Assembly (NCBI RefSeq): GCF_000310205.1
Contig: NZ_AMXE01000039.1
Location: 1-35,278, forward strand
Source: Thauera linaloolentis 47Lol = DSM 12138
GTDB taxonomy: Bacteria; Pseudomonadota; Gammaproteobacteria; Burkholderiales; Rhodocyclaceae
Direction: 5' to 3'
Length of the DNA: 35,278 nucleotides
Positions within the stretch are counted from its first letter, which is position 1; each line of letters starts with the position of its first letter. The translations under genes and the position numbers were made by a program. Positions 10,071-31,827 of the stretch are shown piece after piece. The notes below the pieces were generated by a model that searched no databases, had not been told where the DNA came from, and was given only the letters and a program-made list of their open reading frames with translations.

Positions 10071-10364
10071 AGCCGCTTCCGGCGTGGAGCCCGGCAGGGA
10101 GCGCGGCGTAAAGGCGCAGCCGCCGAGCCTACTTTCGACGTCAGCGTGGGCGCTGCCATGCCGCTGCTGCGGACGTGGCAGCGGCGGGGCCGCCACGCCG
10201 ACCAGCCAATAGACGCAAGACGCCCGTTCCGCCCCCGAATAGCCTGAATGTCAAGACCGGAGCCGCCAAGCGCAGCGCCGAGGGCGTGTCCGCCTGTCCC
10301 GCGGATGCCGCTCCGCGACCCCCCACGAGTCGGTGCAAATCCGCGCATTCAGGAGACAGTGAAA
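10071..10364 (+). other. Intergenic region opening the catabolic cluster
   Basis: There is no gene in these 294 nt. A short inverted repeat (CCGCTGC at 10161-10167, GCAGCGG at 10178-10184) lies downstream of the glycosylase and has no T-tract. After it comes the first copy of the repeated promoter motif, and then a leader of about 110 nt with an AGGAGA ribosome site at 10351-10356. Confidence 0.6.
10204..10245 (+). promoter_or_regulatory. Regulon promoter copy 1 (SDR-kinase unit)
   Basis: The motif AGCCAATAGACGCAAGAC lies at 10204-10221. A -10 hexamer TAGCCT lies at 10240-10245, starting 24 nt after the start of CAAG (10216). Predicted transcription starts near 10252, about 110 nt before the SDR ATG. 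Confidence 0.75.
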
Positions 10365-11144
10365 ATGTCATCGATCTTTCCTACGCCGTCGTTCGAGCTC
10401 ACCGGCAAACTGGCCTTGGTGACCGGCGCCAGCCGCGGCATCGGCGAAGCAGTCGCGCACACGCTGGCCGCCAGCGGCGCGCAGGTGCTGGTGGCCAGCC
10501 GCAAGGCGGATGCCTGCGAGCGGGTGGCCGAGGCGATCCGCGAGCAAGGCGGGCTGGCGCGCGCCCTGCCATTCCACACCGGCGACGTGGAGCAGATCCA
10601 GCGCGCCTTCGAAATCGTCGCTGCCGACTACGGCCGGCTCGACATCCTGGTGAACAACGCCGCGACCAACCCGTACTTCGGCCCCATCGTCGACACCGAC
10701 CCGGCCGCGTTCCAGAAGACCATGGACGTGAACGTGCGCGGCTTCTTCTTCTGTTCCTCGCTGGGCGTCAGGCTGATGGCGCGCCACGGTAGCGGCAGCA
10801 TCGTCAATGTCGCCTCGATCAATGCCGTCGCGCCGGGGCCGGGGCAGGGCGTGTATTCGATCACCAAGGGCGCGGTGGTCACGATGACGCGCGCCTTCGC
10901 CGCCGAATGTGCGCCGCTGGGGGTGCGCGTCAACGCGCTGCTGCCCGGCGTGACCGATACCCGCTTCGCCGCGGCGCTGGTGGACGATCCGGCCTTGCTC
11001 GACGCCATGCTGGCGCGGGTGCCGCTCAAGCGTGTGGCACAGCCTTCGGAAATGGCGGGCGCGGTGCTGTATCTGGCCTCCGCCGCGTCGAGCTACACCA
11101 CCGGCGCCTGCCTCACGGTGGATGGCGGCTTCCTGGCCCATTGA
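10365..11144 (+). CDS. Short-chain dehydrogenase/reductase
   Basis: A 259-residue classical SDR. The start at 10365 has AGGAGA nearby and gives a normal N-terminus; an earlier in-frame ATG at 10248 lies at the predicted transcription start. The NAD(P) motif is TGASRGIG (20-27), the structural NNAA is 97-100, catalytic Ser is S151, and Y164-x3-K168 is the active site. The NPYFGPIVD stretch after NNAA resembles DHRS4-type SDRs. It could oxidise a hydroxyacyl-CoA or a terpenoid alcohol, roles given to AtuB/AtuG-type SDRs in acyclic terpene clusters. The substrate cannot be fixed from sequence. It is first in the unit driven by promoter copy 1, 53 nt before the kinase gene. Confidence 0.85.
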   Translation: MSSIFPTPSFELTGKLALVTGASRGIGEAVAHTLAASGAQVLVASRKADACERVAEAIREQGGLARALPFHTGDVEQIQRAFEIVAADYGRLDILVNNAATNPYFGPIVDTDPAAFQKTMDVNVRGFFFCSSLGVRLMARHGSGSIVNVASINAVAPGPGQGVYSITKGAVVTMTRAFAAECAPLGVRVNALLPGVTDTRFAAALVDDPALLDAMLARVPLKRVAQPSEMAGAVLYLASAASSYTTGACLTVDGGFLAH

Positions 11145-11197
11145 GCCATCGGCCCGGCAACCCACCTCCCTGCGAACCATTGACGCGGAGCGCGAAC

Positions 11198-12262
11198 ATG
11201 CGGAACGACTTTGTCGGCACGATGCCGATGCAGCAAAAACAGGCTTTCGAGGTCGAGCGGCTGGCGGCCTATCTGCGCGGGCACATCGCCGGCTTCGACG
11301 GCCCCCTGACGGTGGAGCAGTTCAAGGGCGGCCAATCCAACCCTACCTTCCTGCTCAGTGCCGGTGACGCGCGCTATGTGTTGCGCCGCAAGCCGCCGGG
11401 CAAGCTGTTGCCGTCAGCGCACGCGGTGGACCGTGAATACCGCGTCATCACCGCGCTGCGCGACAGCGCGGTGCCGGTGGCGCGTACCTACTGCCTGTGC
11501 GAGGACGACGGCGTGATTGGCACGCCCTTCTACGTGATGGAATACGTGGCTGGCCGGGTGCTGTGGGAGGGCGACCTGCCCGGCTTCGGCGTGGCCGAGC
11601 GCGGCGCGGTGTATGACGAGATGAACCGCGTCATTGCCGCCCTGCACCGTGTCGACCCGCAGGCGGTGGGGTTGGCCGACTACGGCAAGCCGGGCAACTA
11701 CTTCGAGCGCCAGATCGCGCGCTGGAGCCGCCAGTACCGCGCCTCCGAAACCGAGCGCATCGATGCCATGGAACGGCTGATCGCGTGGCTGCCGGCGCAT
11801 ATTCCGCCGGGCGAGGAAACCGCCATCGTGCACGGCGATTTCCGCCTCGACAATCTCATCTTCGCCGCCGACGCCCCGCGCCTGATCGCGGTGCTGGACT
11901 GGGAGTTGTCCACCCTCGGCCATCCGCTGGCGGATTTCTCCTATCACATGCTGCCGTGGTATCTGCGGCCGGACGAGTTTCGCGGGCTGGTGGGTTTCGA
12001 CCTGCCCGCCCTCGGCATTCCGTCGGCGGAAGACTATCTGGCGCGCTACTGCCAGCGCACCGGCCGCGTCGTCGAGCCCGAGGCCTGGCGCTTCTATCTG
12101 GCCTACAACCTGTTCCGGCTGGCGGCGATCCTGCAGGGCATCATGGCGCGCGCAGTCGATGGCACTGCGTCCAGCCAGCATGCGCAGACCACCGGCGCGC
12201 GCGCCCGCGTCGTCGCCGAAGCCGGCTGGCGCCAGGTCGAGCGCATCGGTCACGCCGGGTAG
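11198..12262 (+). CDS. APH-family phosphotransferase (ACAD10/11 kinase-domain-like)
   Basis: A 354-residue aminoglycoside-phosphotransferase-fold kinase. Visible motifs are GGQSNPTFLL (nucleotide loop), YVLRRKPPGKLLPSAHAVDRE (the Lys and following Glu region), the catalytic loop HGDFRLDN (212-219) and the metal-binding VLDWE (D234). The GKLLPSAHAVDREYRV and ELSTLGHPLAD stretches are typical of the acyl-CoA-linked subgroup fused to acyl-CoA dehydrogenases in mammalian ACAD10 and ACAD11. There the kinase phosphorylates 4-hydroxyacyl-CoA so that the dehydrogenase domain can remove the phosphate. A GCGGAG site precedes the ATG by 7 nt. The likely partner here is the acyl-CoA dehydrogenase at 18021, in the same regulon. 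Confidence 0.82.
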   Translation: MRNDFVGTMPMQQKQAFEVERLAAYLRGHIAGFDGPLTVEQFKGGQSNPTFLLSAGDARYVLRRKPPGKLLPSAHAVDREYRVITALRDSAVPVARTYCLCEDDGVIGTPFYVMEYVAGRVLWEGDLPGFGVAERGAVYDEMNRVIAALHRVDPQAVGLADYGKPGNYFERQIARWSRQYRASETERIDAMERLIAWLPAHIPPGEETAIVHGDFRLDNLIFAADAPRLIAVLDWELSTLGHPLADFSYHMLPWYLRPDEFRGLVGFDLPALGIPSAEDYLARYCQRTGRVVEPEAWRFYLAYNLFRLAAILQGIMARAVDGTASSQHAQTTGARARVVAEAGWRQVERIGHAG

Positions 12263-12350
12263 CGTGCCGCCCGTTGGGGGGCGGACGTAATGGGTTGCTG
12301 TAGCCAGGCGCCGACCCCCCCGATCGACCCACGCCCTCAACGCCCGACAC

Positions 12351-12392
12351 GACCAATTGACGCAAGCCCCCGGCCGCCCGCTTGGCTAAGGT
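12351..12392 (+). promoter_or_regulatory. Regulon promoter copy 2 (acyl-CoA dehydrogenase-FadB-thiolase unit)
   Basis: The motif GACCAATTGACGCAAGCC lies at 12351-12368. TAAGGT at 12387-12392 starts exactly 24 nt after CAAG (12363). Transcription would start near 12399, about 48 nt before the ATG at 12447, which has a GGGAG site. Confidence 0.75.
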
Positions 12393-12446: not shown

Positions 12447-14336
12447 ATGGCCGGACTGCTGGACCGCCGCGAGCTGGATTTTCTGCTCTACGAATTGCTC
12501 GACACCGCCGCGCTGCCGGGGCGCCCGCGCTACCGCGAGCATTCGCGCGAGGTGTTCGACACGGCCATCGACTTGTTCGCCCGTATCGCCGCCGCGCAGT
12601 TCGCGCCCTACTACCGCAAGGGGGATGTCGAGGAGCCGCACTTCGACGGCGAGCGGGTGCATCTGATTCCGGAAACCCAGGTGGCCTGGGACACGCTGCG
12701 CGCCAGCGGTTTCCTCAAGGCCCACTGCGACGAGGCCGAGGGCGGCCTGCAACTGCCCGAGATCGTGCTGCGCGCCGCCATGGCGCACCTGATGGTGGCC
12801 AACGGGCCGGCCACCGCGTATCCGTTTCTCACGCTGGGGGTGATCAACCTGCTGCGCGCCTTTGGCAGCGAGGCGCAGAAAGCGCGCTACCTCGGGCCGC
12901 TGATGGACGGCGAATGCGCCGGCACGATGGCGCTCACCGAGCCGGATCAGGGCTCCGCGCTCGGCGACATCCGCACCCGTGCCGAGCCGCAGCCGGACGG
13001 CAGCTACCGCCTGTTCGGGCAGAAGATGTTCATCTCCGGCGGCGAGCACGAACTGAGTGCCAACATCGTGCACATGGTGCTGGCCCGCATTGCCGGCGCG
13101 CCGGCCGGTGCACGCGGCATTTCACTGTTCCTGGTGCCGAAATGGCTGCCGGGCGATGGGGACGGTGATATCGATGTCGAGGCGGCCGGCACCCCCGCCG
13201 CGCGTTCCGCCCGCCGCAACGACGTGGCGCTGGCCGGCCTGCTGCACAAGATGGGACAGCGCAATTCGGTCACCACGGTGCTCAACTTCGGCGAGGCCGG
13301 CGGCGCGGTGGGTTATCTGGTCGGTGCGGCCGGGCGGGGGCTGGCGTGCATGTTCCAGATGATGAACGAGGCCCGCATCGGCGTCGGCCTGAATGCCGCC
13401 GCCACCGCGCTGCGCGGCTACCGCTATGCGCTCGACTACGCCCGCAGCCGCAAGCAAGGCCGCCCGGCGTCGCACAAGCAGCCGCTGTCGCCGCAAGTGG
13501 CGCTGACCGCGCATGCCGACGTGCGGCGCATGCTGCTGGCGCAGAAAGCCTATGCCGAAGGCGGCCTGGCGCTGTGCCTGTATGCCAGCGCGCTTTTCGA
13601 GGATGAGCGTACCCACCCCGAGGCGGCGGCGCGGCAGCGCGCCGGCGAACTGCTGGACCTGCTCACCCCCGTGGTCAAGTCCTGGCCGGCCAAATATGGC
13701 TTCGCCGCCAACGACCTGGCCATCCAGGTGCTCGGCGGCGCCGGCTACACCCGCGAGCACCCGGTCGAGCAGTTGCTGCGCGACCAACGCATCAACGCCA
13801 TCCACGAAGGCACGGAGGGCATCCACGGCCTCGACCTGCTCGGCCGCAAGCTGCGCCAGCACGGTGGCGCCGGTTTCGGCCACCTGCGCGCCGAAGTGGC
13901 CGCAACCGTCGCCGCCGCGCGCGCCGAGGCGGTGCTGGCGCCGTTGGCGGTGGCGCTGGAAACCCACTGGCGCCTGCTCGACGACACCTCCACGGCACTG
14001 CTGGCGGCCCAGGCGGCCGATATCGACCGCGCGCTGGCCAATGCCACGGCTTATCTGGATGTCTTCGGCCGCGTGGTGATGGGCTGGCTGTGGCTGCGCC
14101 AGGCATGCATCGCGGTGCGGCGGCTGGCCGACCTGGGAGCGGGGGCCGACGGCGGTGACGGCGCCGGGGCTGAGGATGAACGCGAGGGCGCAAGCGAAGC
14201 CCATTTCTATCGCGGCAAGCTGCAGGCGGCGCGCTGGTATCTGGCCTGGGAACTGCCGGCCATCGTGCCGCTGTGCCGGCTGCTGGGCGACGGCGACACC
14301 GTGGCGTACGAGATGCGCGATGCGTGGTTTGGATGA
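12447..14336 (+). CDS. Acyl-CoA dehydrogenase with C-terminal extension domain
   Basis: A 629-residue flavin enzyme that makes 2-enoyl-CoA from acyl-CoA. It is about 200 residues longer than ordinary acyl-CoA dehydrogenases and belongs to the FadE5/DmdC-like group with an extra C-terminal domain. Visible blocks are MALTEPDQGSALGDIRT and KMFISGGEHELS (flavin/substrate region), FQMMNEARIGVG, and RINAIHEGTEGIHGLDLLGRKL, where E454 is the probable catalytic base. It is the first gene of the unit with FadB and thiolase. A branched or long terpenoid acyl-CoA is plausible given the neighbours; the DmdC substrate (methylmercaptopropionyl-CoA) cannot be excluded on family grounds. Confidence 0.9.
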   Translation: MAGLLDRRELDFLLYELLDTAALPGRPRYREHSREVFDTAIDLFARIAAAQFAPYYRKGDVEEPHFDGERVHLIPETQVAWDTLRASGFLKAHCDEAEGGLQLPEIVLRAAMAHLMVANGPATAYPFLTLGVINLLRAFGSEAQKARYLGPLMDGECAGTMALTEPDQGSALGDIRTRAEPQPDGSYRLFGQKMFISGGEHELSANIVHMVLARIAGAPAGARGISLFLVPKWLPGDGDGDIDVEAAGTPAARSARRNDVALAGLLHKMGQRNSVTTVLNFGEAGGAVGYLVGAAGRGLACMFQMMNEARIGVGLNAAATALRGYRYALDYARSRKQGRPASHKQPLSPQVALTAHADVRRMLLAQKAYAEGGLALCLYASALFEDERTHPEAAARQRAGELLDLLTPVVKSWPAKYGFAANDLAIQVLGGAGYTREHPVEQLLRDQRINAIHEGTEGIHGLDLLGRKLRQHGGAGFGHLRAEVAATVAAARAEAVLAPLAVALETHWRLLDDTSTALLAAQAADIDRALANATAYLDVFGRVVMGWLWLRQACIAVRRLADLGAGADGGDGAGAEDEREGASEAHFYRGKLQAARWYLAWELPAIVPLCRLLGDGDTVAYEMRDAWFG

Positions 14337-14388
14337 CACGGAGGCACCGCGTTCCGCACAGGCAGGCGTGCCGGAACGCGGCGAAACG

Positions 14389-16617
<2,229 letters not shown>

Positions 16618-16649
16618 ACCCCGCCGCCCCGCACTCTGGAGTCTGAACC

Positions 16650-17834
16650 ATGCGTGAAGCAGTCATCGTGTCCACCGCACGAACCCCGATCGGCCGTGCC
16701 TTCCGCGGCGCGCTGAACAACATCAAGTCGCCAACCCTGCTGGGCCACGCCCTGCGCCATGCGGTGGACCGCGCCGGCCTCGACGGTGGCGAGATCGAGG
16801 ACATCGTGCTCGGCAGCGTCCTCAGCGCCGGCACCGCCGGCATGAACCTGGCACGCACCGCCGGCCTCGCCGCCGGCCTGCCAGTCAGCGTGGCCGGCCA
16901 GACCCTCGATCGCCAATGCTCTTCCGGGCTGATGGCGGTGGCCACCGCCGCCAAGCAGATCATGGTGGATGGCATGGACGTGGTGGTGGCCGCCGGCCAC
17001 GAGAACATCTCGGCGGTGCAGAACCGCTACCTGGAATGGGTGGCGGCCGAAACCGACCCGCGCGTCATCGCGCGCGTCGCCCACGCCTACATGCCGATGC
17101 TGCAGACCGCCGAACACGTGGCGGCGAAATACGGCCTCTCGCGCGCGGCGCAGGATGCCTATGCGCTGCAATCGCAGCAGCGCACCGCGCAAGCGCAGCG
17201 CGACGGCCGTTTCGATGCCGAGATCGTGCCCATCGACACCGTGATGGCGGTGACCGACAAGATCACCCAGGCGGTCTCCTATCGTCCGGTGACGCTGGCG
17301 CGCGACGAAGGCAACCGCCCCGACACCACGCCGGACTCGCTGGCCGAACTGAAGCCGGTGCTCGACGGCGGCACCGTCACCGCCGGCAACGCCAGCCAGT
17401 TGTCGGACGGCGCCTCCGCCTGCGTGCTGATGGAGCGCAGCCTGGCCGAGCGCCGTGGGCTGGCGCCGCTGGGCCTGTACCGGGGCATGGCGGTGGCCGG
17501 CTGCGCGCCGGAGGAAATGGGCATCGGCCCGATCTATGCCATCCCCCGGCTGCTGCGCCGGCACGGCCTCACGGTGGACGACATCGGCCTGTGGGAGCTC
17601 AACGAAGCCTTCGCCTGCCAGGCGCTGTATTGCCGCGATTTTCTCGGCATCGACCCCGAGCGCTACAACGTCAATGGGGGTGGCATTTCCATTGGCCATC
17701 CCTACGGCATGACCGGCGCGCGCCAGGTCGGCCACGCGCTCATCGAAGGCAAGCGGCGCGGCGTGCGCTACGTGGTGATCTCGATGTGCGTCGGCGGCGG
17801 CATGGGCGCGGCCGGGCTGTTCGAGGTGGCGTGA
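16650..17834 (+). CDS. Acetyl-CoA acyltransferase (thiolase)
   Basis: A 394-residue degradative thiolase. The nucleophilic Cys is C90 in [13 protein letters not shown], the active-site His is H350 in [19 protein letters not shown], and the second catalytic Cys is C380 in [16 protein letters not shown]. The length is normal for the family. It cleaves 3-oxoacyl-CoA with CoA to release acetyl-CoA. It follows the FadB-like gene by 32 nt and is last in the unit started at promoter copy 2. In an acyclic-terpene pathway it would act after lyase cleavage on the 7-methyl-3-oxo-6-octenoyl-CoA-type intermediate and in later rounds; that assignment is inference. Confidence 0.93.
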
Positions 17835-17862: not shown

Positions 17863-17904
17863 AGCCACTAGGCGCAAGACCGGCGTCATGGCGGGTTTTA
17901 AGCT
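17863..17904 (+). promoter_or_regulatory. Regulon promoter copy 3 (second acyl-CoA dehydrogenase)
   Basis: The motif AGCCACTAGGCGCAAGAC lies at 17863-17880. TAAGCT at 17899-17904 starts 24 nt after CAAG (17875). The leader to the ATG at 18021 is about 110 nt and includes an AT-rich patch at 17941-17956 that could hold a second promoter. Confidence 0.7.
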
Positions 17905-18020: not shown

Positions 18021-19238
<1,218 letters not shown>

Positions 19239-19376
19239 CCCCTGCCCACACGGCCCGGCTAGGTCCGGCAGCCCGGAGGCCTGCGGCGGCGGCGCAGACC
19301 ATGCCACCGGCGCCGGGTAAAAAATACGGTGTCGCGCGCCCCCTCGGTGCGTCGCACAGGGGCGCGCGCGCGACGC

Positions 19377-19405
19377 TGGCGCCGTGCCGAATCGGCACGG
19401 CGCCA
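19377..19405. promoter_or_regulatory. Perfect 29-bp palindrome, candidate operator
   Basis: The arms TGGCGCCGTGCCGA and TCGGCACGGCGCCA are exact reverse complements around a single central A. It ends 5 nt before the candidate -35 of the ligase promoter. There is no T-tract, so an operator for a dimeric (for example TetR-type) regulator is a better fit than a terminator. As RNA it would be a hairpin with a minimal loop. Confidence 0.5.
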
Positions 19406-22690: not shown

Positions 22691-22792
22691 GCACAACCGC
22701 GCACCTGCACCCGCTTCGCTTGCTCATCGAACGGCGCTGCATCGCACCGCAGGCCGTTGCCTCACGAACCCACTCACGCCTCAGGAGGCCCC

Positions 22793-23584
22793 ATGCGCGA
22801 CCTGTGCGCCGATCTGCTGGCCGAATACATCGAACTGGTGGCCCTGGCCGAAACGCTGACGCCGGCGCAGTGGTCGCTGCCGACCGATTTCCACGGCTGG
22901 ACGGCCTTCGACGTCATCGGCCATCTGTGCTTTTTCGATCAGGCCGGCTTGCTGGCCGCCACCGATGCCGATGCCTTCGCCCGCGATTGTGCCGTGGTGA
23001 TGGGCGAGCTGGCGTGCGGTCGCCAGATCAGCGAAATCACCCGCGCGCGCTACGGCCACCTGAGCGGTGCCGAGCTGCTGGCAGCGTGGCGGGCGCAGTT
23101 CGGCGAACTGGTGGCGGTGCTGGCCGCCCGCGACGCCAAGGCGCGCCTGCCGTGGTACGGACCGAGCATGAGCGCGCGCTCCTTCGCCACCGCCCGGCTG
23201 ATGGAAACCTGGGCGCACGGGCAGGACGTGTACGACGCGTTGCGGCGGCGCCGGGCGCCCACTGCGCGTCTGAAGCACATCGCCCATCTGGGCGTGTCCA
23301 CCTTTGGCTGGAGCTTCGTCAATCGCGGCCTGGCGGTGCCCGAGCCGCCGCCCCAGGTGAGCCTCAACGCCCCCGACGGCGGCGTGTGGACCTGGCAGGG
23401 GCCGTCGGCCCGCGAGTACCTGCGCGGCACGGCCGAAGACTTCTGTCTGCTGGTGACGCAACGCCGCCACCGCGACGACCTGGCGCTGGAGCATGGCGGT
23501 CCGGCCACCACGGCGTGGCTGGCGATTGCGCAATGTTTCGCCGGCCCGCCGGCGGACGGCCCGGCGCCGGGGCGGCGTGGCTGA
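22793..23584 (+). CDS. TIGR03084-family DinB/MDMPI-like protein
   Basis: A 263-residue protein starting at 22793 with AGGAGG 4 nt upstream. It matches the TIGR03084 family of putative metal-binding proteins with a DinB-like (mycothiol-dependent maleylpyruvate isomerase) four-helix fold. The pattern is LVALAETLTPAQWSLPTDFHGWTAFDVIGHLCFFDQ with H44, then ARSFATARLMETWAHGQDVYDAL, whose His and Asp are the likely remaining metal ligands. A C-terminal beta-rich domain contains WTWQGPSAREYLRGTAEDFCLLVTQRR. The biochemical role is not known; members often occur in acyl-CoA degradation clusters. Its end overlaps the next gene by 8 nt. Confidence 0.8.
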   Translation: MRDLCADLLAEYIELVALAETLTPAQWSLPTDFHGWTAFDVIGHLCFFDQAGLLAATDADAFARDCAVVMGELACGRQISEITRARYGHLSGAELLAAWRAQFGELVAVLAARDAKARLPWYGPSMSARSFATARLMETWAHGQDVYDALRRRRAPTARLKHIAHLGVSTFGWSFVNRGLAVPEPPPQVSLNAPDGGVWTWQGPSAREYLRGTAEDFCLLVTQRRHRDDLALEHGGPATTAWLAIAQCFAGPPADGPAPGRRG

Positions 23585-24500
23585 GGGCGCGGCGGCAGTC
23601 TTGGCGGAGGCCGAGCCCTTATGCCCGTCGCAGGCGGACTGGGTCGAGGCCCGTTTGCGGCCGCTGCGGGCGGCACAAGGGGAGGGGTGCCCGGCCGAGT
23701 ACTGCTTTTCCAACCTGTACCTGTTCCGCGCGGCGCATGACTACCGCCTGATCCGCGACGCGGCGCTGCCGTGCATCGTCGGCCGCACCTACGATGGCGA
23801 GGCTCACGTGCTGCCGCTGTTCGACGTCGCCGCTGCCGATCCTAGCCAGTTGGCGATGCTGGTGGCCCGCCAAGGCCCCTTGTATCCGCTGTCCGGGCAG
23901 ACCGTGGCCGGGCTGGATACGGCACGCTTCGTGGCGCGGGCGGTGCGCGACGATGCCGACTATGTGTATCGGACTGACGAGTTGTGCGCGCTGAATGGCT
24001 CGCGGCTGCGCAAGAAGCGGGCGCAGATCCGGCAGTTGCTGGACACGCACCGGATGCGCTGCTGCCCGCTTGGCGGAGTTGGCGGGGCCTCCGCCGCTGC
24101 CTCCACCGCGCGCGACGATGCGTTGCGCGTGCTGGACGGCTGGATGGCCGAAAAGGGCAAGGCCGCCGGCGAGGCCGACCACGTCGCCTGCGCAGCGGCG
24201 CTGCGAGCGCCGTGGCTGGCCGCGCATGAAGGCTGGCTGTGGTACGCCGACGACCGGCCGGCGGGCTTTCTGTTGGCGCAGCGGCTCAACGCCGAGGTGA
24301 TGGTGGTGCGTTTCGCCAAGGGGCTGGCGGCCTATGCGGGCGTTTTCCCGCTGATGTTCCACGCCCTGGCGCAGCGTACCGATGCGCCGTGGATCAACTT
24401 CGAGCAAGACCTTGGCGTGGCCAACTTCCGCCGCGCCAAGCTGGCCTATGCGCCGGCCATGCTGTTGGCGAAGTACCGCGTGGACCTGCGGCCGGGTTGA
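23577..24500 (+). CDS. DUF2156-type protein (GNAT-like, phosphatidylglycerol lysyltransferase C-terminal fold)
   Basis: About 307 residues from a GTG at 23577 that overlaps the previous gene by 8 nt; the longer ATG at 23493 would overlap it by 92 nt. The DUF2156 pattern is clear: CFSNLYLFRAAHDYRLI, DYVYRTDELCALNGSRLRKKRAQIRQLL, and a C-terminal INFEQDLGVANFRRAKLAYAPAMLLAKYRV. This is the double-GNAT fold also seen at the C-terminus of MprF lysyltransferases, but there is no membrane domain, so it is a soluble protein. Its acyl donor and acceptor are unknown. Linkage to TIGR03084 and crotonase genes suggests a role in acyl-CoA metabolism, but that is only context. Confidence 0.75.
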   Translation: MAEGAAAVLAEAEPLCPSQADWVEARLRPLRAAQGEGCPAEYCFSNLYLFRAAHDYRLIRDAALPCIVGRTYDGEAHVLPLFDVAAADPSQLAMLVARQGPLYPLSGQTVAGLDTARFVARAVRDDADYVYRTDELCALNGSRLRKKRAQIRQLLDTHRMRCCPLGGVGGASAAASTARDDALRVLDGWMAEKGKAAGEADHVACAAALRAPWLAAHEGWLWYADDRPAGFLLAQRLNAEVMVVRFAKGLAAYAGVFPLMFHALAQRTDAPWINFEQDLGVANFRRAKLAYAPAMLLAKYRVDLRPG

Positions 24501-24582: not shown

Positions 24583-24625
24583 AGCCAATTGACACAAGAC
24601 CACCGCGCGGCGGCGCCGTTAGGCT
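24583..24625 (+). promoter_or_regulatory. Regulon promoter copy 5 (carboxylase unit)
   Basis: The motif AGCCAATTGACACAAGAC lies at 24583-24600. The -10 is TTAGGC at 24 nt or TAGGCT (24620-24625) at 25 nt after the start of CAAG (24595). The leader to the carboxylase ATG is about 55 nt. Confidence 0.75.
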
Positions 24626-24687: not shown

Positions 24688-26325
24688 ATGCAACGAATCG
24701 AATCGGATATCCAGACGAGCGGCGACGCCTTCCGGGCCAACCGCGACAGCATGCTGGCGCTGGTGGCGCGCGTGCGCGAGCTGGAAGCCCGTACCCACCA
24801 GGCCTCGGCCGCGTCCAAGCCGCGTTTCGAGCGCCGCGGGCAGTTGCTGCCGCGCGAGCGGCTGGCGCTGCTGCTCGATGCGGGCAAGCCGTTCCTCGAA
24901 TTGTCCACGCTGGCCGGCTATGGCCTGGATACGCCCGACCCGGACAAGAGCGTGCCGGGTTGCGGCGTGATCTGCGGCATTGGCTACGTGTCCGGGGTGC
25001 GCTGCGTCATCAATGCCTCGGATTCCGGCATCGACGCCGGCGCGATGCAGCCGATGGGGCTGCCGAAAGTGCTGCGCGCGCAGGAATTGGCGCTGGAAAA
25101 CAAGCTGCCCTATGTGCAACTGATCGAGAGCGCCGGCGCCAACCTGCTGCAATATCGCGTCGAGCATTTCGTACACGGCGGCAACATCTTCCGCAACCTG
25201 GCGCGCCTGTCGGCGGCCGGACTGCCGGTGCTGGCGGTGGTGCATGGCTCGTCGACCGCCGGCGGCGCCTACATCACCGGGCTGTCGGACTACATCATCA
25301 TGGTGCGCAACAATGCGCGCGCCTTCCTCGCCGGCCCGCCGCTGCTCAAGGCCGCCACCGGCGAGATCGCCACCGAGGAAGAACTCGGCGGCGGCGAAAT
25401 GCACACCACGGTGTCGGGGCTGGGCGATTACCTGGCCGAGGACGACCGCGACGCCATCCGCCTGGCGCGCGACGTGATGGCCCGCCTCGACTGGAACCGC
25501 GACCTGCCGCCGCCACCGGCCGTGGCGAACCCGGCGCGCGCGGTGCGCCCGCCGCGCTACAGCGGCGAAGAGCTGCTGGGCATCATGCCCACCGACCCCA
25601 AGCGCCCGGTGGACATGCGCGAAGTGCTGCTGCGCGTGGTCGACGATTCGGACTTCCTCGAATTCAAGCCCGGCTACGGCCCGGCCACCGTGTGCGCCCA
25701 CGCCGCCATCGACGGCCACCCGGTCGGCATCATCACCAACAACGGCCCCATCGACCCGGCCGGCGCCACCAAGGCCACGCACTTCATCCAGGCCTGCTGC
25801 CAGGCGCGCATCCCGCTGCTGTACCTGAACAACATCACCGGCTTCCTGGTCGGCCGCAGCGTCGAAGAGGCCGGCATCATCAAGCACGGCTCGAAGATGA
25901 TCCAGGCCGTCTCCAATGCCACCGTGCCGCAGATCACGCTGTACTGCGGCGCCTCCTTCGGCGCAGGCAACTACGGCATGTGCGGCCAGGGCTTTCATCC
26001 GCGCTTCTGCTTTTCGTGGCCCAACGCCAAGACGGCGGTGATGGGCGGCGAGCAGGCGGCGCAGACCATGGCGATCGTGGCCGAGGCGGCGATGAAGCGC
26101 AAAGGCCAGGCGGTGGATCAGGCCCGGCTGGACGGCATGCGGCAGCAGATCATCGACACCTTCGAGTCGCAGATGAGCGCCTTCGCCACCAGCGCGCGCC
26201 TGCTCGACGACGGCGTGATCGACCCGCGCGACACGCGGGCGGTGCTGTCCTTCGTGCTGGCCACCTGCCGCGAGGCCGCGCTGCGCCAGCCGCAGCCGAT
26301 GCAGTTCGCGGTGGCGCGCCCCTGA
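24688..26325 (+). CDS. atuC-like: Acyl-CoA carboxylase carboxyltransferase (beta) subunit, geranyl/methylcrotonyl type
   Basis: A 545-residue carboxyltransferase of the methylcrotonyl-CoA/geranyl-CoA carboxylase class. The N-half has INASDSGIDAGAMQPMGLPKVLRAQELALENKLPYVQLIESAGANL and HGSSTAGGAYITGLSDYIIMV. The C-half has GIITNNGPIDPAGATKATHFIQACC and LYCGASFGAGNYGMCGQGFHPRFCFSWPNAKTAVMGGEQAAQTM. Biotin-borne carboxyl is passed to a 3-methyl-2-enoyl-CoA. Substrate (C5 or C10) cannot be set by eye. The adjoining Ldi-family gene under the same motif makes geranyl-CoA attractive. The ribosome site is weak. The alpha subunit follows by 71 nt. Confidence 0.88.
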   Translation: MQRIESDIQTSGDAFRANRDSMLALVARVRELEARTHQASAASKPRFERRGQLLPRERLALLLDAGKPFLELSTLAGYGLDTPDPDKSVPGCGVICGIGYVSGVRCVINASDSGIDAGAMQPMGLPKVLRAQELALENKLPYVQLIESAGANLLQYRVEHFVHGGNIFRNLARLSAAGLPVLAVVHGSSTAGGAYITGLSDYIIMVRNNARAFLAGPPLLKAATGEIATEEELGGGEMHTTVSGLGDYLAEDDRDAIRLARDVMARLDWNRDLPPPPAVANPARAVRPPRYSGEELLGIMPTDPKRPVDMREVLLRVVDDSDFLEFKPGYGPATVCAHAAIDGHPVGIITNNGPIDPAGATKATHFIQACCQARIPLLYLNNITGFLVGRSVEEAGIIKHGSKMIQAVSNATVPQITLYCGASFGAGNYGMCGQGFHPRFCFSWPNAKTAVMGGEQAAQTMAIVAEAAMKRKGQAVDQARLDGMRQQIIDTFESQMSAFATSARLLDDGVIDPRDTRAVLSFVLATCREAALRQPQPMQFAVARP

Positions 26326-26396
26326 GTACCGGCGCGGGCCGCGCCCTGCGGCGGGCCGCGACGGCTTTCCCCGACAGCGAGAGCAGACGTCACACC

Positions 26397-28514
26397 ATGA
26401 CCGACAAGACCCCCTTCACCAAGATTCTCATCGCCAACCGGGGCGAGATCGCGTTGCGCGTGATGCGCACCGCGCGCGCGCTCGGCTACCGCAGCGTGGC
26501 GGTGTATTCCAGCGCCGACCGCCACGCCCGCCACGTGCGCGACGCCGACCAGGCGGTATGCATCGGCGAGGCGCTGCCGGCGCAGTCCTACCTCAACATC
26601 CCCGCCATCATCGACGCGGCACGCCGCAGCGGTGCCGACGCGGTGCACCCCGGCTACGGCTTCCTCGCCGAGAACGCGGACTTCGCCCAGGCCTGCCGCG
26701 ACGCCGGGCTGGTGTTCATCGGCCCGTCGCCGGCGGCCATCGTCGCCATGGGCAACAAGGCCGGCGCCAAGCGGCTGATGCTGGCGGCCGGGGTGCCGTG
26801 CATTCCCGGCTACCAGGGCGACGACCAGCGCGACGACACGCTGGCGGCGGCGGCGCGCGAGATCGGCTTTCCGCTGATGATCAAGGCCACCGCCGGCGGC
26901 GGCGGGCGCGGCATGCGGCTGGTGCAGGGCGAGGCGCAGTTCGCCGCCGAGCTGCGCAGCGCCCGGTCCGAGGCGCACAGCGCCTTCGGCAGCCCGGAGG
27001 TGATTCTCGAGCGTGCCATTCTCGAACCGCGCCACATCGAGATGCAGATCTTCGCCGACCGCCACGGCAACGTCATCCACCTGGGCGAGCGCGACTGTTC
27101 GGTGCAGCGCCGCCACCAGAAAGTCATCGAGGAGGCGCCGTCGCCGGCCGTGGATGCCGCGCTGCGCCAGCGCATGGGCGACACCGCGGTCGCGGCGGCG
27201 CGCGCCATCGGCTACGAAGGCGCCGGCACGCTGGAATTCCTGCTCGATGCCGAGGGCCGCTACTACTTCATGGAGATGAACACGCGGCTGCAGGTGGAGC
27301 ACCCGGTCACTGAACTGATCACCGGGCTGGACCTGGTCGAACTGCAGTTGCGCGTGGCCGCCGGCGAAGTCCTGCCGCTGACGCAGGCGGCGGTGCGCTT
27401 CAGCGGCCACGCGGTCGAGGTGCGGCTGTGCGCCGAGGCGCCGTCGCAAGGCTTCATGCCGCAAAGCGGCACCATGCACGTATGGCAGATGCCGGCCGAG
27501 GTGCGCGTGGAGCACGCGCTGGCCTCCGGCGAGGCGATTCCGCCGTTCTACGACTCGATGATCGCCAAGCTCATCGCCCACGGCGAAAACCGCGAGGCCG
27601 CCTGCCGCAAGCTTGCCCGCGCGCTCGACGACGCGGTGGCGCTGGGCGTGCCGACCAACCAGCACTATCTGGCGCGCTGCCTGCGGCACCCAGTGTTCCT
27701 GGCCGGCCACGCCACCACCGCCTTCATCGCCGCGCATGGCGAGGCCTTGCTGCAGGCCGGCCCGTTGCCGGCCGTCAGTGAAGCGCCCACTTCGCATCCT
27801 TCACAGACATCGCCCATCTCGCACACCTCACAGCGCGCGGGCGCGCCGACGGGTGCACAAGCCCTGGCGACGCTGCTGCTGCATGTGACGGCCGGTGAGG
27901 CCGGTCCGGCCATGGCGGCGAGTCTGTCCGCCGTGCCGGCCGGCTGCGACATCACCCACCGCCTGCCGATCGACTACCGCTTCACGCTGGACGGCGCCGC
28001 GTGCGCCACCCGGCTGCTCGACCTCGGCGCCGGCCGCTTTGCCGTGACGGTGGCGGGCGAGGAACAGGTCCTGAGCCTGGCCGGCCGCAGCGGGCACGCA
28101 CTGCGCTACCTGCATGACGGCCTGCTGCAACGCGCCGCCTGCGTGCGCGACGGCGCCAGCCTGTGGTTCGACGACGGCGCCGCCGCCTACCATGTCGAGG
28201 ACAGTACCCACGCGGCGGCCACGCGCAACGATGGCGGCGATGCCGACGGCCGCATCCGCGCGGCGATGAATGGCCGCGTGGTGGCGGTGCATGTGGCGGT
28301 AGGCGACACCGTCGCGGCGGGCCAGCCGGTGCTGACCCTCGAAGCAATGAAAATGGAATACGTGCACCCGGCGCCGCTGGCCGGCCGGGTCGGCGCGCTG
28401 CATGCCGAGGTGGGCGGGCAGGTGGCGGCCTACCGCGTGGTGGCGGAAATCGCACCCGAGCCGGCCGTGGGGCAGGGCGAAGCGCCGGCCGTGGCACGCC
28501 AGGAGGTGGCATGA
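26397..28514 (+). CDS. atuF-like: Acyl-CoA carboxylase biotin carboxylase/BCCP (alpha) subunit
   Basis: A 705-residue alpha subunit. Residues of about 8-450 are biotin carboxylase: ILIANRGEIALRVMRTARALGY, HPGYGFLAENADFAQAC, the ATP-grasp loop KATAGGGGRGMRLV and YYFMEMNTRLQVEHPVTE. A low-complexity Ser/Thr/Pro linker (SHPSQTSPISHTSQ) at about 465-480 separates it from a BT-like domain. The biotinyl domain is at the C-terminus, with K652 as the biotinylation lysine in LEAMKMEYVHP. The protein is somewhat longer than typical alpha subunits of about 660 residues, partly because of that linker. It uses ATP and bicarbonate to carboxylate its own biotin for the beta subunit. The stop overlaps the next gene (ATGA). 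Confidence 0.92.
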   Translation: MTDKTPFTKILIANRGEIALRVMRTARALGYRSVAVYSSADRHARHVRDADQAVCIGEALPAQSYLNIPAIIDAARRSGADAVHPGYGFLAENADFAQACRDAGLVFIGPSPAAIVAMGNKAGAKRLMLAAGVPCIPGYQGDDQRDDTLAAAAREIGFPLMIKATAGGGGRGMRLVQGEAQFAAELRSARSEAHSAFGSPEVILERAILEPRHIEMQIFADRHGNVIHLGERDCSVQRRHQKVIEEAPSPAVDAALRQRMGDTAVAAARAIGYEGAGTLEFLLDAEGRYYFMEMNTRLQVEHPVTELITGLDLVELQLRVAAGEVLPLTQAAVRFSGHAVEVRLCAEAPSQGFMPQSGTMHVWQMPAEVRVEHALASGEAIPPFYDSMIAKLIAHGENREAACRKLARALDDAVALGVPTNQHYLARCLRHPVFLAGHATTAFIAAHGEALLQAGPLPAVSEAPTSHPSQTSPISHTSQRAGAPTGAQALATLLLHVTAGEAGPAMAASLSAVPAGCDITHRLPIDYRFTLDGAACATRLLDLGAGRFAVTVAGEEQVLSLAGRSGHALRYLHDGLLQRAACVRDGASLWFDDGAAAYHVEDSTHAAATRNDGGDADGRIRAAMNGRVVAVHVAVGDTVAAGQPVLTLEAMKMEYVHPAPLAGRVGALHAEVGGQVAAYRVVAEIAPEPAVGQGEAPAVARQEVA

Positions 28515-29344
28515 TGCAGCCCGATTCGCTGACTACCGCCGACGTTGCCGATGCCGCCATGGAGGCGGTGGCGGACGGCGCGGTGCTGCTGCGCAAGCAC
28601 GCCGCCGCGCTGTGGATCACCCTCAACCGCCCGGACAAACGCAACGCCCTCAACCCGCAGGTGATCGAAGGCATCGGCGAGGGCTACCGCCGCGCCCATG
28701 CCGATCCGTCGGTGCGCGCCATCGTCCTGACCGGCGCCGGCGACAAGGCCTTTTGCGCCGGTGGCGACCTGCAGCCGGGGCAAGGCTTCGTCTTCGATCA
28801 TGCCCGCCCCAACGTGCCCTATGCCGATCTGCTGCGGCTGGCGGCCAATGCCACGCTGCCGTCGATCGCGCGCATCAACGGCACCTGCATGGCCGGCGGC
28901 ATGGGCTTGCTGGCGATGGCCGACATGGCGGTGGCGGCCGACCATGCGCTGTTCGGCCTGCCGGAAGTCAAGATCGGGCTGTTCCCGATGCAGGTGCTGA
29001 GCCTGTTGCAGCATCTGGTGCCGCCGCGCCTGCTGCGCGAATGGTGCTTCAGCGGCGAGCCCTTCGATGCCGCCACGGCGCGCGACAGCGGCCTGCTCAA
29101 CCATGTGGTGCCGGCCGCCGAGCTGGATGCCAAGGTGGCGTGGCTGCTGGCACGCCTCACCGACAAATCGCCCACCGCGATCCGGCGCGGCCGCTACGCG
29201 ATGCGGGCGATGGCGGCGATGAGCTTCGACGAGGCCATCGCCTATACCGAAGGCCAACTGGCGTTGTTGAGCCAGACCGAAGACGCGCAGGAAGGGCTGG
29301 CCGCCTTCAACGACAAGCGCCGCCCGGTGTGGCGCGGCCGCTAG
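28511..29344 (+). CDS. atuE-like: Crotonase-family hydratase (candidate AtuE-like)
   Basis: A 277-residue crotonase with an unusually long acidic N-terminal tail of about 25 residues before LLRKHAAALWITLNRPDKRNALNP. Oxyanion-hole segments are KAFCAGGDLQPGQG and INGTCMAGGMGLLAMADMAVAA. The first hydratase Glu position is Gly (AGGMGLLAM), while GLPEVKIGLFPMQVL retains the second. Coupling to the carboxylase (ATGA overlap, AGGAGG site at 28501-28506) suggests it hydrates the carboxylated product, as AtuE does with isohexenylglutaconyl-CoA, or a methylglutaconyl-CoA homologue. That function is inferred from position. Confidence 0.85.
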   Translation: MMQPDSLTTADVADAAMEAVADGAVLLRKHAAALWITLNRPDKRNALNPQVIEGIGEGYRRAHADPSVRAIVLTGAGDKAFCAGGDLQPGQGFVFDHARPNVPYADLLRLAANATLPSIARINGTCMAGGMGLLAMADMAVAADHALFGLPEVKIGLFPMQVLSLLQHLVPPRLLREWCFSGEPFDAATARDSGLLNHVVPAAELDAKVAWLLARLTDKSPTAIRRGRYAMRAMAAMSFDEAIAYTEGQLALLSQTEDAQEGLAAFNDKRRPVWRGR

Positions 29345-29371: not shown

Positions 29372-29413
29372 AGCCAATAAACGCAAGTGTGGTGCGGGGG
29401 CCGCCGGTATGGT
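29372..29413 (+). promoter_or_regulatory. Regulon promoter copy 6 (Ldi-family gene)
   Basis: The motif AGCCAATAAACGCAAGTG lies at 29372-29389. TATGGT at 29408-29413 starts exactly 24 nt after CAAG (29384). The leader to the ATG at 29511 is about 90 nt. Confidence 0.75.
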
Positions 29414-29510: not shown

Positions 29511-31454
29511 ATGAGCAATATGGAATCGACCCGCATGCTGCGGCAGCCGATACAGTTGTTGCAGGGGCACAAGGGACCGGTCACGGCCTCGCGCCACCGC
29601 CGCAATGCCGTGGTGTATGCACTGCTGTGCCTGCTGGCGCTGCTACCGGTGGCCACCGGCCAGTCGGCGGCGTGGCAGGCCGCCGGGCTGGGGCTGTTCA
29701 TGCCCGGCGCCGGTTTCCTGGCGCTGGGTGGCGCCTGGGCGTTGCTGTTCCCGCTGACGGTGTTCGTCTTCTGGCTGGCGGTCATTGCCTGGTTCTGGTC
29801 GGGCATGGTGGTGGCGCCGCTGACCCTCTGGCTGGGCACCGCCGCGCTGGCCGGCTGGCTGGCGGGCGAGGCGATCTGGCCGCCGGCGGTGTATCTGGCG
29901 CCGGCCGCCGCCGCCGCCACCTTCCTGTTCTTCCAGTATCGCGGCGCCAAGCGGCGGGCCAAGGACCGCGAGCACTTCAAGTTCCGCCAAAGTTTCTTCG
30001 CCGAGTCGCTGGCGGAGGTGCACCAGCGCGCCGCCACCGAACCGGAGCCGGGCGAGCGCGAACTGACGCCGGACCAGTTGCAGGGCGTGCGCTACCTGCT
30101 CGAGCTGGCCTTGCAGCCGGTCGGCCAGTACAAGGGCTACACCATCATCGACCAGTTCCAGCCGGCCGCCCTGCGCTACCAGCTCAACCACATCGGCTTC
30201 GCGCTGGGCATGGTGCAAGGGCATTACACGCCCAACTTCCAGGGCTATCTGGGCCAGGCGCAGCGCAACGTGATCGACACTTACCGCGAGCGCAAGGTGT
30301 GGGGCTACTGGGTGTACGAGTCGATGTGGGGGCATTTCAACTTCTCCGACTTCGATCCCGCCCGCAAGGACAACATCATGCTCACCGGCTGGTACGGCAT
30401 GCATGTGGGCCAGTACATGCTCAATGCCGGCGACACCCGCTACAGCCAGCCCGGCAGCCTGAGCTTCCGCCTCAACGACAAGACCTGCTACCACCACGAC
30501 ATCCATTCCATCAACCAGTCGGTGCGCGAGAACTTCCAGAGTTCGGACTTCTGCCTGTATCCGTGCGAGCCGAACTGGGTGTACCCGGTCTGCAACATGT
30601 ACGGCATGTCCTCGCTGGCGGTGTATGACACGCTGTTCGAGCGCCGCGACACCGCCCAGGTGCTGCCCAAGTGGCTGCACATGCTGGACACCGAGTTCAC
30701 CGACCAGAAAGGCTCGCTGGTCGGCTTGCGCTCATACTGGACCGGGCTGGAAATGCCGTTCTACACCGGCGAGGCGGGCTTCGCCTTCTTCGCCAACATC
30801 TTCTCGACCGATCTGGCGCGCAAGCTGTGGGCGGTGGGGCGCAAGGAATTGTCGATGTGCCTGACGCAGGACGCCGAGGGCCAGACGCGGCTGACTCTGC
30901 CGAAGGAGGCGCTGGCCTTCTTCGACACCATCGACGCCGGCAACTACCGGCCGGGCAAGCTGTTCGCCTATGTGGCGGTGCAGATGTGCGCGCGCGAGTT
31001 CGGCGACGACGAACTGGCCGAGGCGGCACGCCGCTCGATGGACCAGGATTGCGGCCCGGTGGTCGAGAACGGCGTGGCGCGCTACACCAAGGGCTCGACG
31101 CTGGCCAACATCTGGGGCGTGGAGGGACGGCTGATGCGCACCGGCGATTTCCGCAACAGCTTCGTCAAGGGGCCGCCGTCGTCGGTGTTCGACGGTCCGC
31201 TGCTGGGTGATGCGCGCTATCCGGAAATCCTGGTGGCGAAGGCCTTCAGCCGTGGCGACGACCTGGAACTGGTGCTGTACCCGGGGGCCGGCGACGGGCC
31301 GCAGACGCTGGGCTTCGAACGCCTCAAGCCCGGCGTCCGCTATGTGGTCGAGGGCGCCGCCAGTGGTGAGTTCACCGCCGACGCGGATGGCCGTGCGTCG
31401 CTCGCGGTCACGCTCAGCGGGCGCACTGCGCTGCACATCAAGCCGGGCCACTGA
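29511..31454 (+). CDS. lis: Membrane-anchored linalool dehydratase/isomerase-family enzyme (linalool isomerase-like)
   Basis: A 647-residue protein with four to five membrane segments in residues ~32-143, then a basic stretch ([13 protein letters not shown]) that should place the large C-terminal domain in the cytosol. That domain resembles linalool dehydratase/isomerase (Ldi) of Castellaniella defragrans: RKVWGYW then DNIM (286-290), the cysteine pair C352-x8-C361 in [10 protein letters not shown] (Ldi C171/C180), D214 in IIDQFQP (Ldi D39) and Y418 (Ldi Y240). The size and N-terminal membrane anchor match linalool isomerase of Thauera linaloolentis (known, about 644 residues, four helices), which interconverts linalool and geraniol. 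At the Ldi H129 position this protein has W294. A GGAGGAG site precedes the ATG. Alignment was by eye against a remembered sequence. Confidence 0.85.
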
Positions 31455-31678
31455 GGCGCCGGGCCGTTTCAGGGCGCCGGCTTCGCCGCGGGTCCCACAA
31501 GGACGGGTAAGGTCGGGCGCAGGCCTGCCGCCTGCCATGCCGGGATCCGATTCCCTTCCTTCTCACTGGAGAGGGGGAGGTTGGACGAACACACGCCGCC
31601 GGCACAATTTTGCGTCTCTGTGGGGGCCCTCCCTCTCCCCGGCCCTCCTCCACAAGGGGGAACTCCACATGAACGCAT

Positions 31679-31717
31679 CCGGCACCCCGCCGCTGGCGGG
31701 GTGGCCGGTTTTTTTTC
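31679..31717 (+). terminator. Rho-independent terminator after the Ldi-family gene
   Basis: CACCCCGCC (31683-31691) pairs with GGCGGGGTG (31695-31703) around a GCT loop, and outer CCGG arms extend the stem with one bulge. A run of T residues (about 31709-31716) follows, then another T-rich stretch. It ends the transcript about 225 nt after the stop codon at 31454. Confidence 0.88.
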
Positions 31718-31785
31718 GTTTTTTTGTTGTGCCGCCGCTATGCGGCGTGCTGCAGGCACGCGGGGTAAACGGCTCCGCCGCACAC

Positions 31786-31827
31786 AGCCAATTGACGCAA
31801 GACGCCCCCCGCTGCCCTGCCTATCTT
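31786..31827 (+). promoter_or_regulatory. Regulon promoter copy 7 (DUF1302-DUF1329 unit)
   Basis: The motif AGCCAATTGACGCAAGAC lies at 31786-31803. TATCTT at 31822-31827 starts exactly 24 nt after CAAG (31798). It directly follows the terminator of the previous unit, so the next operon must rely on it. Confidence 0.8.

What the first reader, a model, noticed from the sequence alone, without database searches (positions are those of the whole stretch)
10204..31827. Seven copies of one promoter motif with near-invariant spacing define a dedicated catabolic regulon
Copies at 10204, 12351, 17863, 21333, 24583, 29372 and 31786 fit AGCCAMTWGACGCAAGWC. In six, the -10 hexamer (TAGCCT, TAAGGT, TAAGCT, TATAGT, TATGGT, TATCTT) begins exactly 24 nt after the first base of CAAG; in copy 5 it is 24 or 25 nt. 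Each copy precedes a transcription unit. A 17-nt spacer would put the -35 at the weak AAGACC-like bases inside the motif, so the motif probably binds a class II activator overlapping -35, or is an alternative -35 element. No regulator gene is in the window. I do not recognise the motif as any named family's site.
Basis: seen in the sequence. Interest (0 to 1): 0.88.

Follow-up and report, generated by a model that had tools for sequence, protein, structure and literature searches.

The report
AraC-controlled regulon for terpene breakdown
Seven matching promoters in this bacterial DNA, plus three more on a neighbouring piece, most likely form one switch system in which a single activator protein of the AraC family turns on the genes for eating plant terpenes; we found no description of this protein or its DNA box, although switches of this general type are well known.

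Summary
All seven boxes are present (0-3 mismatches; 0.03 expected), and a TAnnnT hexamer starts 24 nt (copy 5: 25 nt) after CAAG. The window is a contig of a Thauera-like genome with an acyclic monoterpene cluster including linalool dehydratase/isomerase. The likely regulator is not in the window: it is an AraC-family protein on contig C121, about 10 kb past the right end by synteny with Thauera sp. Sel9. C121 carries three more boxes, one before the regulator gene. All ten occur in Sel9 (nine aligned pairs: box 98%, -10 95%, far upstream 39%). In 11 other loci fetched by protein, a box-only matrix gave 12 hits, 9 with TAnnnT in the same register; 60 shuffles gave none in register. Eleven loci with a distant or no homologue gave no hits. 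The box is asymmetric (GCC-N9-AAG, the spacing of a marbox GCA-N9-AAA), forward, and overlaps -35, as at class II MarA promoters. Best reading: a class II activator of an apparently undescribed AraC subfamily, with its regulon. Against: a Nevskia locus has the regulator but no box, G463 is unclear, and genus g302 has boxes without TAnnnT in register. Binding and inducer are untested.

The parts
10204..10245 (+). Regulon promoter 1: box 10204-10221, TAGCCT 10240-10245; before SDR (ATG 10365) and an APH-type kinase-like gene
12351..12392 (+). Regulon promoter 2: box 12351-12368, TAAGGT 12387-12392; before acyl-CoA dehydrogenase (ATG 12447), 3-hydroxyacyl-CoA dehydrogenase/enoyl-CoA hydratase, thiolase
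17863..17904 (+). Regulon promoter 3: box 17863-17880, TAAGCT 17899-17904; before acyl-CoA dehydrogenase (ATG 18021) and acyl-CoA ligase
21333..21374 (+). Regulon promoter 4: box 21333-21350, TATAGT 21369-21374; before a 131-aa ORF, enoyl-CoA hydratase, TIGR03084 protein, LPG_synthase_C-domain protein
24583..24625 (+). Regulon promoter 5: box 24583-24600, TAGGCT 24620-24625 (one base further than the others); before geranyl-CoA-carboxylase-type subunits and enoyl-CoA hydratase
29372..29413 (+). Regulon promoter 6: box 29372-29389, TATGGT 29408-29413; before linalool dehydratase/isomerase (ATG 29511)
31786..31827 (+). Regulon promoter 7: box 31786-31803, TATCTT 31822-31827; before DUF1302 (ATG 31933) and DUF1329 genes
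10365..12262 (+). SDR oxidoreductase and APH-family gene (transcription unit 1, extent inferred)
   Evidence: Pfam
12447..17834 (+). Acyl-CoA dehydrogenase, 3HCDH/ECH fusion, thiolase (transcription unit 2, extent inferred)
   Evidence: Pfam
18021..21200 (+). Acyl-CoA dehydrogenase and AMP-dependent acyl-CoA ligase (transcription unit 3, extent inferred)
   Evidence: Pfam
21421..24500 (+). Small ORF, enoyl-CoA hydratase, TIGR03084 protein, LPG_synthase_C protein (transcription unit 4, extent inferred)
24688..29344 (+). Carboxyltransferase and biotin carboxylase subunits (AtuC/AtuF type by context), enoyl-CoA hydratase (transcription unit 5, extent inferred)
   Evidence: Pfam
29511..31454 (+). 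Linalool dehydratase/isomerase (transcription unit 6)
   Evidence: Pfam PF18566, E 1.4e-94
31933..34972 (+). DUF1302 and DUF1329 genes (transcription unit 7, extent inferred)

Best explanation
The seven boxes, plus three on neighbouring contig C121, are binding sites of one AraC-family transcription activator (G000:C121:5777-6607, minus strand). Each 18-19-bp box, (C/T)AGCCAnTnGACGCAAGAC, is read by one regulator molecule: HTH1 on the distal AGCC block and HTH2 on the proximal CAAG block about one helical turn away. The box overlaps a degenerate -35 region and sits at a nearly fixed distance from a sigma70-type TAnnnT -10, so bound regulator helps RNA polymerase at a promoter that lacks a good -35 (class II activation). 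A box also precedes the regulator's own gene, so positive autoregulation is likely. The inducer is probably an acyclic terpenoid acid or its CoA ester, because clusters with the regulator in whose fetched stretches no Ldi gene is found (G384, Tistrella, genus g302) still share carboxylase and acyl-CoA steps. Shown: the boxes, spacing, conservation, the regulator gene's location, its co-occurrence with the box, and the pathway genes. Inferred: binding, the HTH assignment, one molecule per box, activation rather than repression, and the inducer.
For: (1) Seven boxes with 0.03 expected; all five genome-wide matches at <=1 mismatch are in C39 or C121. (2) AraC-family gene in Sel9 with a 93% identical copy on C121; C121 and C39 align to one Sel9 contig with about 4 kb between them. 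(3) Three further boxes on C121 with -10 in register, one before the regulator gene. (4) Nine orthologous promoter pairs: box 98%, -10 95%, spacer 86%, upstream -60 to -21 39% (ungapped). (5) Box-only matrix on 11 loci fetched by Ldi or AraC protein: 12 hits >=16 bits, 9 with TAnnnT at offset 36/37; 60 shuffles: mean 0.77 hits, 0 with TAnnnT in register; 11 loci with a distant homologue (8) or none (3): 0 hits. (6) Of 200 relatives, only own, Sel9 and G030 carry a close regulator copy; these have 6, 6 and 7 box matches at <=1 mismatch (control 0, 1, 1); every other genome has <=3 except G187, which has 8 copies of one repeated sequence. (7) 28-site profile: conserved columns -1 to 17 (except 5) and mainly 36, 37, 41. 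(8) Both recognition helices are conserved in the box clade, while HTH2 differs in the distant homologues without boxes. (9) Geometry matches a class II marbox.
Against: The Nevskia MAG locus L028 has a 45% identical regulator with very similar recognition helices but no box (best 9.6 bits); that locus is only 13 kb and cut by a contig end. G463 has the regulator (46%) but no convincing composite site: 7 hits, all at 3 mismatches, against 16 in the control. Variovorax has one box (15.4 bits) without TAnnnT. In genus g302 the boxes (6 hits >=16 bits in 5 loci) have no TAnnnT at 36/37. At <=3 mismatches neither the box nor the composite pattern exceeds its reversed control in the own genome (13 against 17; 14 against 17). 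Within 10 kb of the regulator, shuffled sequence reaches 13-20 bits, so single hits mean little. Several loci were fetched with the AraC protein, so its presence there is by construction. The tree split between box clade and the rest has only moderate support (69/91).
Confidence: 0.85

Rival explanations
1. The box is an alternative -35 element of a dedicated sigma factor rather than an activator site.
For: Nearly rigid distance to the -10 (9 of 12 hits at offset 36/37); the canonical -35 is poor.
Against: The conserved block is 18-19 bp in two parts about one turn apart, long for a -35 element. It co-occurs with an AraC homologue in alpha-, beta- and gammaproteobacterial records. The -10 is a TAnnnT of ordinary sigma70 type. 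No sigma factor was among the ten genes typed in each of Sel9 and Steroidobacter; not all genes were typed. In genus g302 the box persists without that -10.
Confidence: 0.05
2. The box is bound by another regulator; the AraC gene is a passenger of the catabolic cluster.
For: Other regulators lie near some loci: a CusS-type kinase in Sel9, TetR in Steroidobacter, IclR and a response regulator in Tistrella, two-component genes in Haematobacter, LysR and Lrp types in Variovorax.
Against: No other regulator family was seen in all of these loci, although typing was partial, whereas the AraC homologue is in each. The box layout is that of an AraC-type site and a box precedes the AraC gene itself in both Thauera genomes. 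Caveat: several loci were fetched with the AraC protein, so its presence there is by construction; only Sel9, G030, Steroidobacter, Nevskia, G039 and L029 were fetched by Ldi.
Confidence: 0.07
3. The protein represses from the box by covering -35 and is released by the inducer.
For: The box overlaps the -35 position.
Against: Without help these promoters have a very poor -35 (AAGACn at 17-bp spacing in most copies), and forward-oriented sites overlapping -35 are activating class II sites for MarA (PMC12052159, passages).
Confidence: 0.06

Closest known systems
MarA/SoxS/Rob/RamA class II promoters (marbox)
   Same: Asymmetric box with two blocks at the same distance (marbox gcannwwntgnnaaa, that is GCA-N9-AAA; here GCC-N9-AAG), forward orientation, overlapping -35, centre near -40 if the start is about 7 nt after the -10 (RamA at micF about -41) (PMC8811837, PMC12052159; passages read)
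   Different: Here the regulator has about 180 residues before its HTH domain, a different box sequence, a catabolic regulon, and its own gene in the cluster
E. coli AraC
   Same: Nearest solved DNA-binding domain (2k9s, 47 bits); HTH1 matches (LSxSRxxHLF in both); the AraC half-site TAGC-N7-TCCATA (recalled, from no call) has comparable block spacing
   Different: No direct-repeat half-site is seen upstream in the 28-site profile; the units carry no arabinose genes; far below the NCBIfam AraC cut-off (42 against 208 bits)
AtuR of Pseudomonas (acyclic terpene utilisation)
   Same: Controls the same kind of pathway
   Different: A TetR repressor binding two 13-bp inverted repeats, AGCAAGCGCTTGG/CCAAGCGCTTGCT (PMC9973270, passages); here an asymmetric box and an AraC protein. 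Thauera linaloolentis 47Lol has a TetR protein 38% identical to AtuR whose role the authors call unclear (PMC4847356, passages)
Castellaniella defragrans monoterpene island
   Same: Anaerobic monoterpene degradation with linalool dehydratase/isomerase
   Different: Regulators named in the passages read are MarR and LuxR types; AraC occurs 0 times in the main text (PMC4109377)
GliR (PA3027) of Pseudomonas aeruginosa
   Same: AraC-type activator of lipid genes with one site overlapping -35
   Different: Binding motif YYGGCGHTDTYSGMC (PMC8151288, passages), unlike this box

Membership tests
AraC/XylS family of regulators (C121 protein) | C-terminal domain with two HTH motifs (HTH_18) | tested here: met
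   Sel9 copy PF12833 47.7 bits, cut-off 33.6; own copy 93% identical; profile hits the AraC DNA-binding domain 2k9s
AraC/XylS family of regulators (C121 protein) | Binds an asymmetric site of two blocks about one turn apart | tested here: inconclusive
   Box shape fits and co-occurrence supports it; binding not measured
Named NCBIfam AraC-type equivalogs | Score above the curated cut-off | tested here: not met
   Best is AraC, 42 bits against a cut-off of 208
Class II activator-dependent sigma70 promoter | Site overlaps -35 in forward orientation at a fixed distance from -10 | tested here: met
   criteria. Met in Thauera and in most hits of the other beta/gamma/alpha set; not in genus g302 (no TAnnnT in register)
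Class II activator-dependent sigma70 promoter | Transcription from these -10 hexamers depends on the activator | not testable with these tools
   Needs RNA and mutants
MarA/SoxS/Rob-like monomeric activators | One monomer per promoter, no second repeat | tested here: inconclusive
   No upstream conservation in 28 sites; one Steroidobacter promoter has a second, weaker copy (12 bits) 18 bp upstream
AtuR regulon | TetR regulator with 13-bp inverted repeats | tested here: not met
   The box is asymmetric and unlike the AtuR repeats, and the regulator found is AraC-type; whether an AtuR gene exists elsewhere in this genome was not tested

The most novel reading that the evidence does not exclude
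An undescribed AraC subfamily, found in alpha-, beta- and gammaproteobacterial records and on plasmids, has kept one DNA code (AGCC...CAAG) and mostly one promoter register while the genes it controls changed from linalool/myrcene degradation to other branched or isoprenoid acid pathways. Regulator and boxes would then move between genomes as a portable class II switch, with the box serving as a marker to find new terpenoid-catabolic clusters.
Probability: 0.6. Interest if true: 0.6.

Novelty: new member of a known kind. Interest (0 to 1): 0.5.

Why it matters
It assigns a candidate regulator and a ten-promoter regulon to an acyclic monoterpene pathway, where the passages read here name TetR, MarR, LuxR and ModE types. 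It gives a testable inducible promoter set and a sequence signature that flagged related regulons in other genomes (for example five promoters in G384). It also offers a comparative case of an AraC-family box and recognition helices that stay fixed while the controlled pathway changes.

Tried and rejected
Alternative sigma factor (-35 element): disfavoured for the length and bipartite shape of the box and its link to the AraC protein. Second direct repeat upstream: not seen in the 28-site profile. Motif as a genome-wide element: rejected for good matches, which cluster in C39/C121; weak matches (3 mismatches) are at chance level. The five other box matches in the own genome (C37, C1, C12, C22, C141) were read on their own strand: 0 of 5 have TAnnnT in register; not pursued further. 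Distant AraC homologues (<=34% identity): no box >=16 bits within the stretches read. Structure prediction not run: the regulator is not in the window, and most of its relatives come from sources that the tool does not accept. Literature: the searches listed no paper that by title or start of abstract describes this regulator or box; six papers were opened for passages, the others were seen as listings only. One search (AraC, monoterpene, degradation, Thauera) gave one paper, a hydratase review not opened. Most subscription papers are not in the library, so earlier description cannot be excluded. The host species was not established: the genus is inferred from the Sel9 contig match.

Counts with rows left out: the 28 sites of the profile were picked by hand, some (three in L110, L048:6066, L055:5632) because a -10 was in or near register, so its -10 columns are partly by construction; the statistical test uses the box alone and leaves out the own, Sel9 and L110-L112 loci. 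One search compared 15 box-clade rows (G030 twice) with 8 distant rows: 12 of 15 and 0 of 8 have a hit >=16 bits within 10 kb. The G463 hit among the 12 lacks TAnnnT and looks like chance. Nevskia was found later and is not in those 15; counting each genome once, without own and Sel9, with the G463 hit taken as a miss and Nevskia added, gives 8 of 13 against 0 of 8 (Fisher p 0.006). Relatedness of the rows (five from one genus) is not corrected. An earlier count said 11 of 15; the output gives 12. In G384, 5 of 6 composite matches at <=2 mismatches have TAnnnT; the sixth (C1:588182) was not counted as a promoter. In genus g302 five of nine regulator loci were read.
Full report
Observation. A TAnnnT hexamer begins 36 nt after the box start in six copies and 37 nt in copy 5. 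Six of seven are followed by a gene with a clear ATG. The fourth is followed by a 131-aa ORF of unknown function and then an enoyl-CoA hydratase. I therefore treat the observation as confirmed, with the note that only two copies fit the consensus exactly.

Setting. The window is the whole of contig C39 of a 4.2-Mb, 220-contig genome. Its genes from 10365 on look like an acyclic monoterpene degradation cluster: SDR, APH-type protein, acyl-CoA dehydrogenases, 3-hydroxyacyl-CoA dehydrogenase/hydratase, thiolase, acyl-CoA ligase, carboxylase subunits, hydratases, linalool dehydratase/isomerase, DUF1302 and DUF1329. The left third of the window (TonB receptor, CoxE, HDOD, AAA, radical SAM and DNA glycosylase genes) has no boxes. 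Of 21 window ORFs scanned with Pfam none hit a transcription-regulator DNA-binding family; small ORFs were not scanned.

The regulator. In Sel9 the same contig continues past the DUF1302/DUF1329 region through BNR, MMPL, alcohol dehydrogenase, aldehyde dehydrogenase and AtuA genes to an SDR gene, an AraC-family gene and an MBL-fold hydrolase gene. The own genome has the regulator on contig C121, 93% identical. C39 and C121 align to Sel9 with a gap of about 4 kb, which places the regulator roughly 10 kb beyond the window's right end. C121 adds three boxes: at 6904+ before the MBL-fold gene, at 6846- before the regulator gene, and at 5695- before the SDR gene. Each has a TAnnnT in register (at 37 for the first). 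With the composite box plus -10 pattern, 9 of 10 own-genome matches at <=2 mismatches are in C39/C121; at <=3 mismatches it is 10 of 14, with 17 in the reversed control. The five other box matches in the genome have no TAnnnT in register (0 of 5).

Conservation. All ten promoters are found in Sel9. For the nine pairs aligned, ungapped identity is 98% in the box, 95% in the -10, 86% in the spacer, 67% in the 20 nt upstream, 39% in the 40 nt beyond that, and 65% downstream.

Independent test. A matrix made only from the 18-bp box of eight own sites was run on 11 loci from G030, a Steroidobacter MAG, Variovorax, Tistrella and Haematobacter plasmids, G384 and G463, all fetched by Ldi or AraC protein. 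It gave 12 hits at >=16 bits, and 9 of these 12 have TAnnnT at offset 36 or 37. Sixty Markov shuffles gave 0.77 hits on average (at most 3) and none with TAnnnT in register; 11 loci with a distant homologue (8) or none (3) gave no hit in 206 kb. Examples: the Tistrella box lies just before an acyl-CoA carboxylase operon. G384 has five promoters with TAnnnT: before carboxylase subunits and AtuA, an SDR gene, an acyl-CoA ligase, a periplasmic binding protein, and an acyl-CoA-dehydrogenase-like gene followed by an APH gene. A genus (g302) outside the order has a regulator about 40% identical in 9 genomes; five of the nine loci were read. A box precedes an acyl-CoA dehydrogenase gene in all five (14.4 bits in the weakest), and in three a second, divergent box faces an acyl-CoA ligase gene; none of its hits >=16 bits has TAnnnT in register. 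No Ldi gene was found in the fetched stretches of G384, G463, Tistrella, Haematobacter, Variovorax or g302 (13 loci).

Co-occurrence across genomes. Of 200 relatives, 10 have any homologue at E <= 1e-10 and only own, Sel9 and G030 have a close one. In a search of 200 relatives these three have 6, 6 and 7 box matches at <=1 mismatch. All others have at most 3, which is also the control's maximum, except G187, which has eight copies of one identical repeated sequence. Seven Ldi-bearing loci or genomes were compared: own, Sel9, G030 and Steroidobacter have regulator and box; G039 and L029 have neither in the stretches read; the Nevskia MAG (L028) has the regulator but no box. Nevskia is a counterexample unless its boxes lie outside the 13 kb held.

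Shape of the site. The 28-site profile shows a (C/T)AGCCA block and a CGCAAGAC block, then 18 variable bases and TAnnnT, and nothing conserved upstream. The site is asymmetric. GCC-N9-AAG has the spacing of a marbox (GCA-N9-AAA), it points forward, and with a start about 7 nt after the -10 its centre is near -40, which is the class II arrangement (PMC12052159 and PMC8811837, passages). The AAGACn bases at a 17-bp spacing are a poor -35. The AraC proteins of the box clade conserve HTH1 (SRFxHLF) and HTH2 (THFSHSIR-like). HTH1 is largely shared with the distant homologues and with E. coli AraC, while HTH2 differs in the distant homologues, which fits their lack of this box. That HTH1 reads the distal block and HTH2 the proximal one is inferred from MarA and AraC (recalled). 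In the tree the box clade falls on one side of a branch with moderate support only (69/91).

Mechanism. Most likely the regulator, bound with an isoprenoid acid or its CoA ester, sits on the box as one molecule per promoter and helps sigma70 polymerase use promoters that lack a good -35. It probably also activates its own gene. The regulator gene's location, the box, the register and the co-occurrence are shown; binding, ligand, stoichiometry and direction of control are inferred.

Known or new. No NCBIfam family reaches its cut-off on this regulator (best 42 bits against 208). The paper searches listed no description, though most papers were seen as listings only. AtuR of Pseudomonas, the known regulator of this kind of pathway, is a TetR protein with a different site. 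The kind of system, an AraC-family class II regulon, is well known; the regulator-box pair and its regulon appear new.

Noticed in passing
window 32681-32814: The DUF1302 gene changes reading frame relative to the 548-aa Sel9 protein (two overlapping matches in frames 1 and 2); a real frameshift or an assembly error.
   Followed up: partly
L027 16636-16671: The Steroidobacter promoter before a TonB receptor gene has a box with a second, weaker copy directly upstream, 18 bp apart, unlike the single boxes elsewhere.
   Followed up: no
L023 and L022 (genome G030): G030 carries two Ldi loci (one given as two matches) and two copies of the AraC regulator, each about 50% identical to that of Sel9.
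   Followed up: partly
L030 6971-7453 and L020 3768-5018: An MBL-fold hydrolase gene carries a regulon box, divergent from the regulator gene; an MBL-fold gene also sits beside a box-bearing acyl-CoA dehydrogenase gene in Haematobacter (L055) and beside a distant AraC homologue in Sinorhizobium (L128). Its role is unknown.
   Followed up: no
L129 13943 and 8793: An identical stretch of at least 46 bases resembling the box occurs twice in the Paraburkholderia plasmid region, once inside a thiolase gene; probably a duplicated fragment, not a promoter.
   Followed up: no
G187 contig C1 154167-156452 and 2304943-2504557: Eight copies of one identical box-like 18-mer, mostly spaced by multiples of 252 bases, look like part of a longer repeat rather than regulatory sites.
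   Followed up: no
window 21421-21816: A 131-aa ORF lies first behind promoter 4, before the enoyl-CoA hydratase; it was not scanned against any family library.
   Followed up: no
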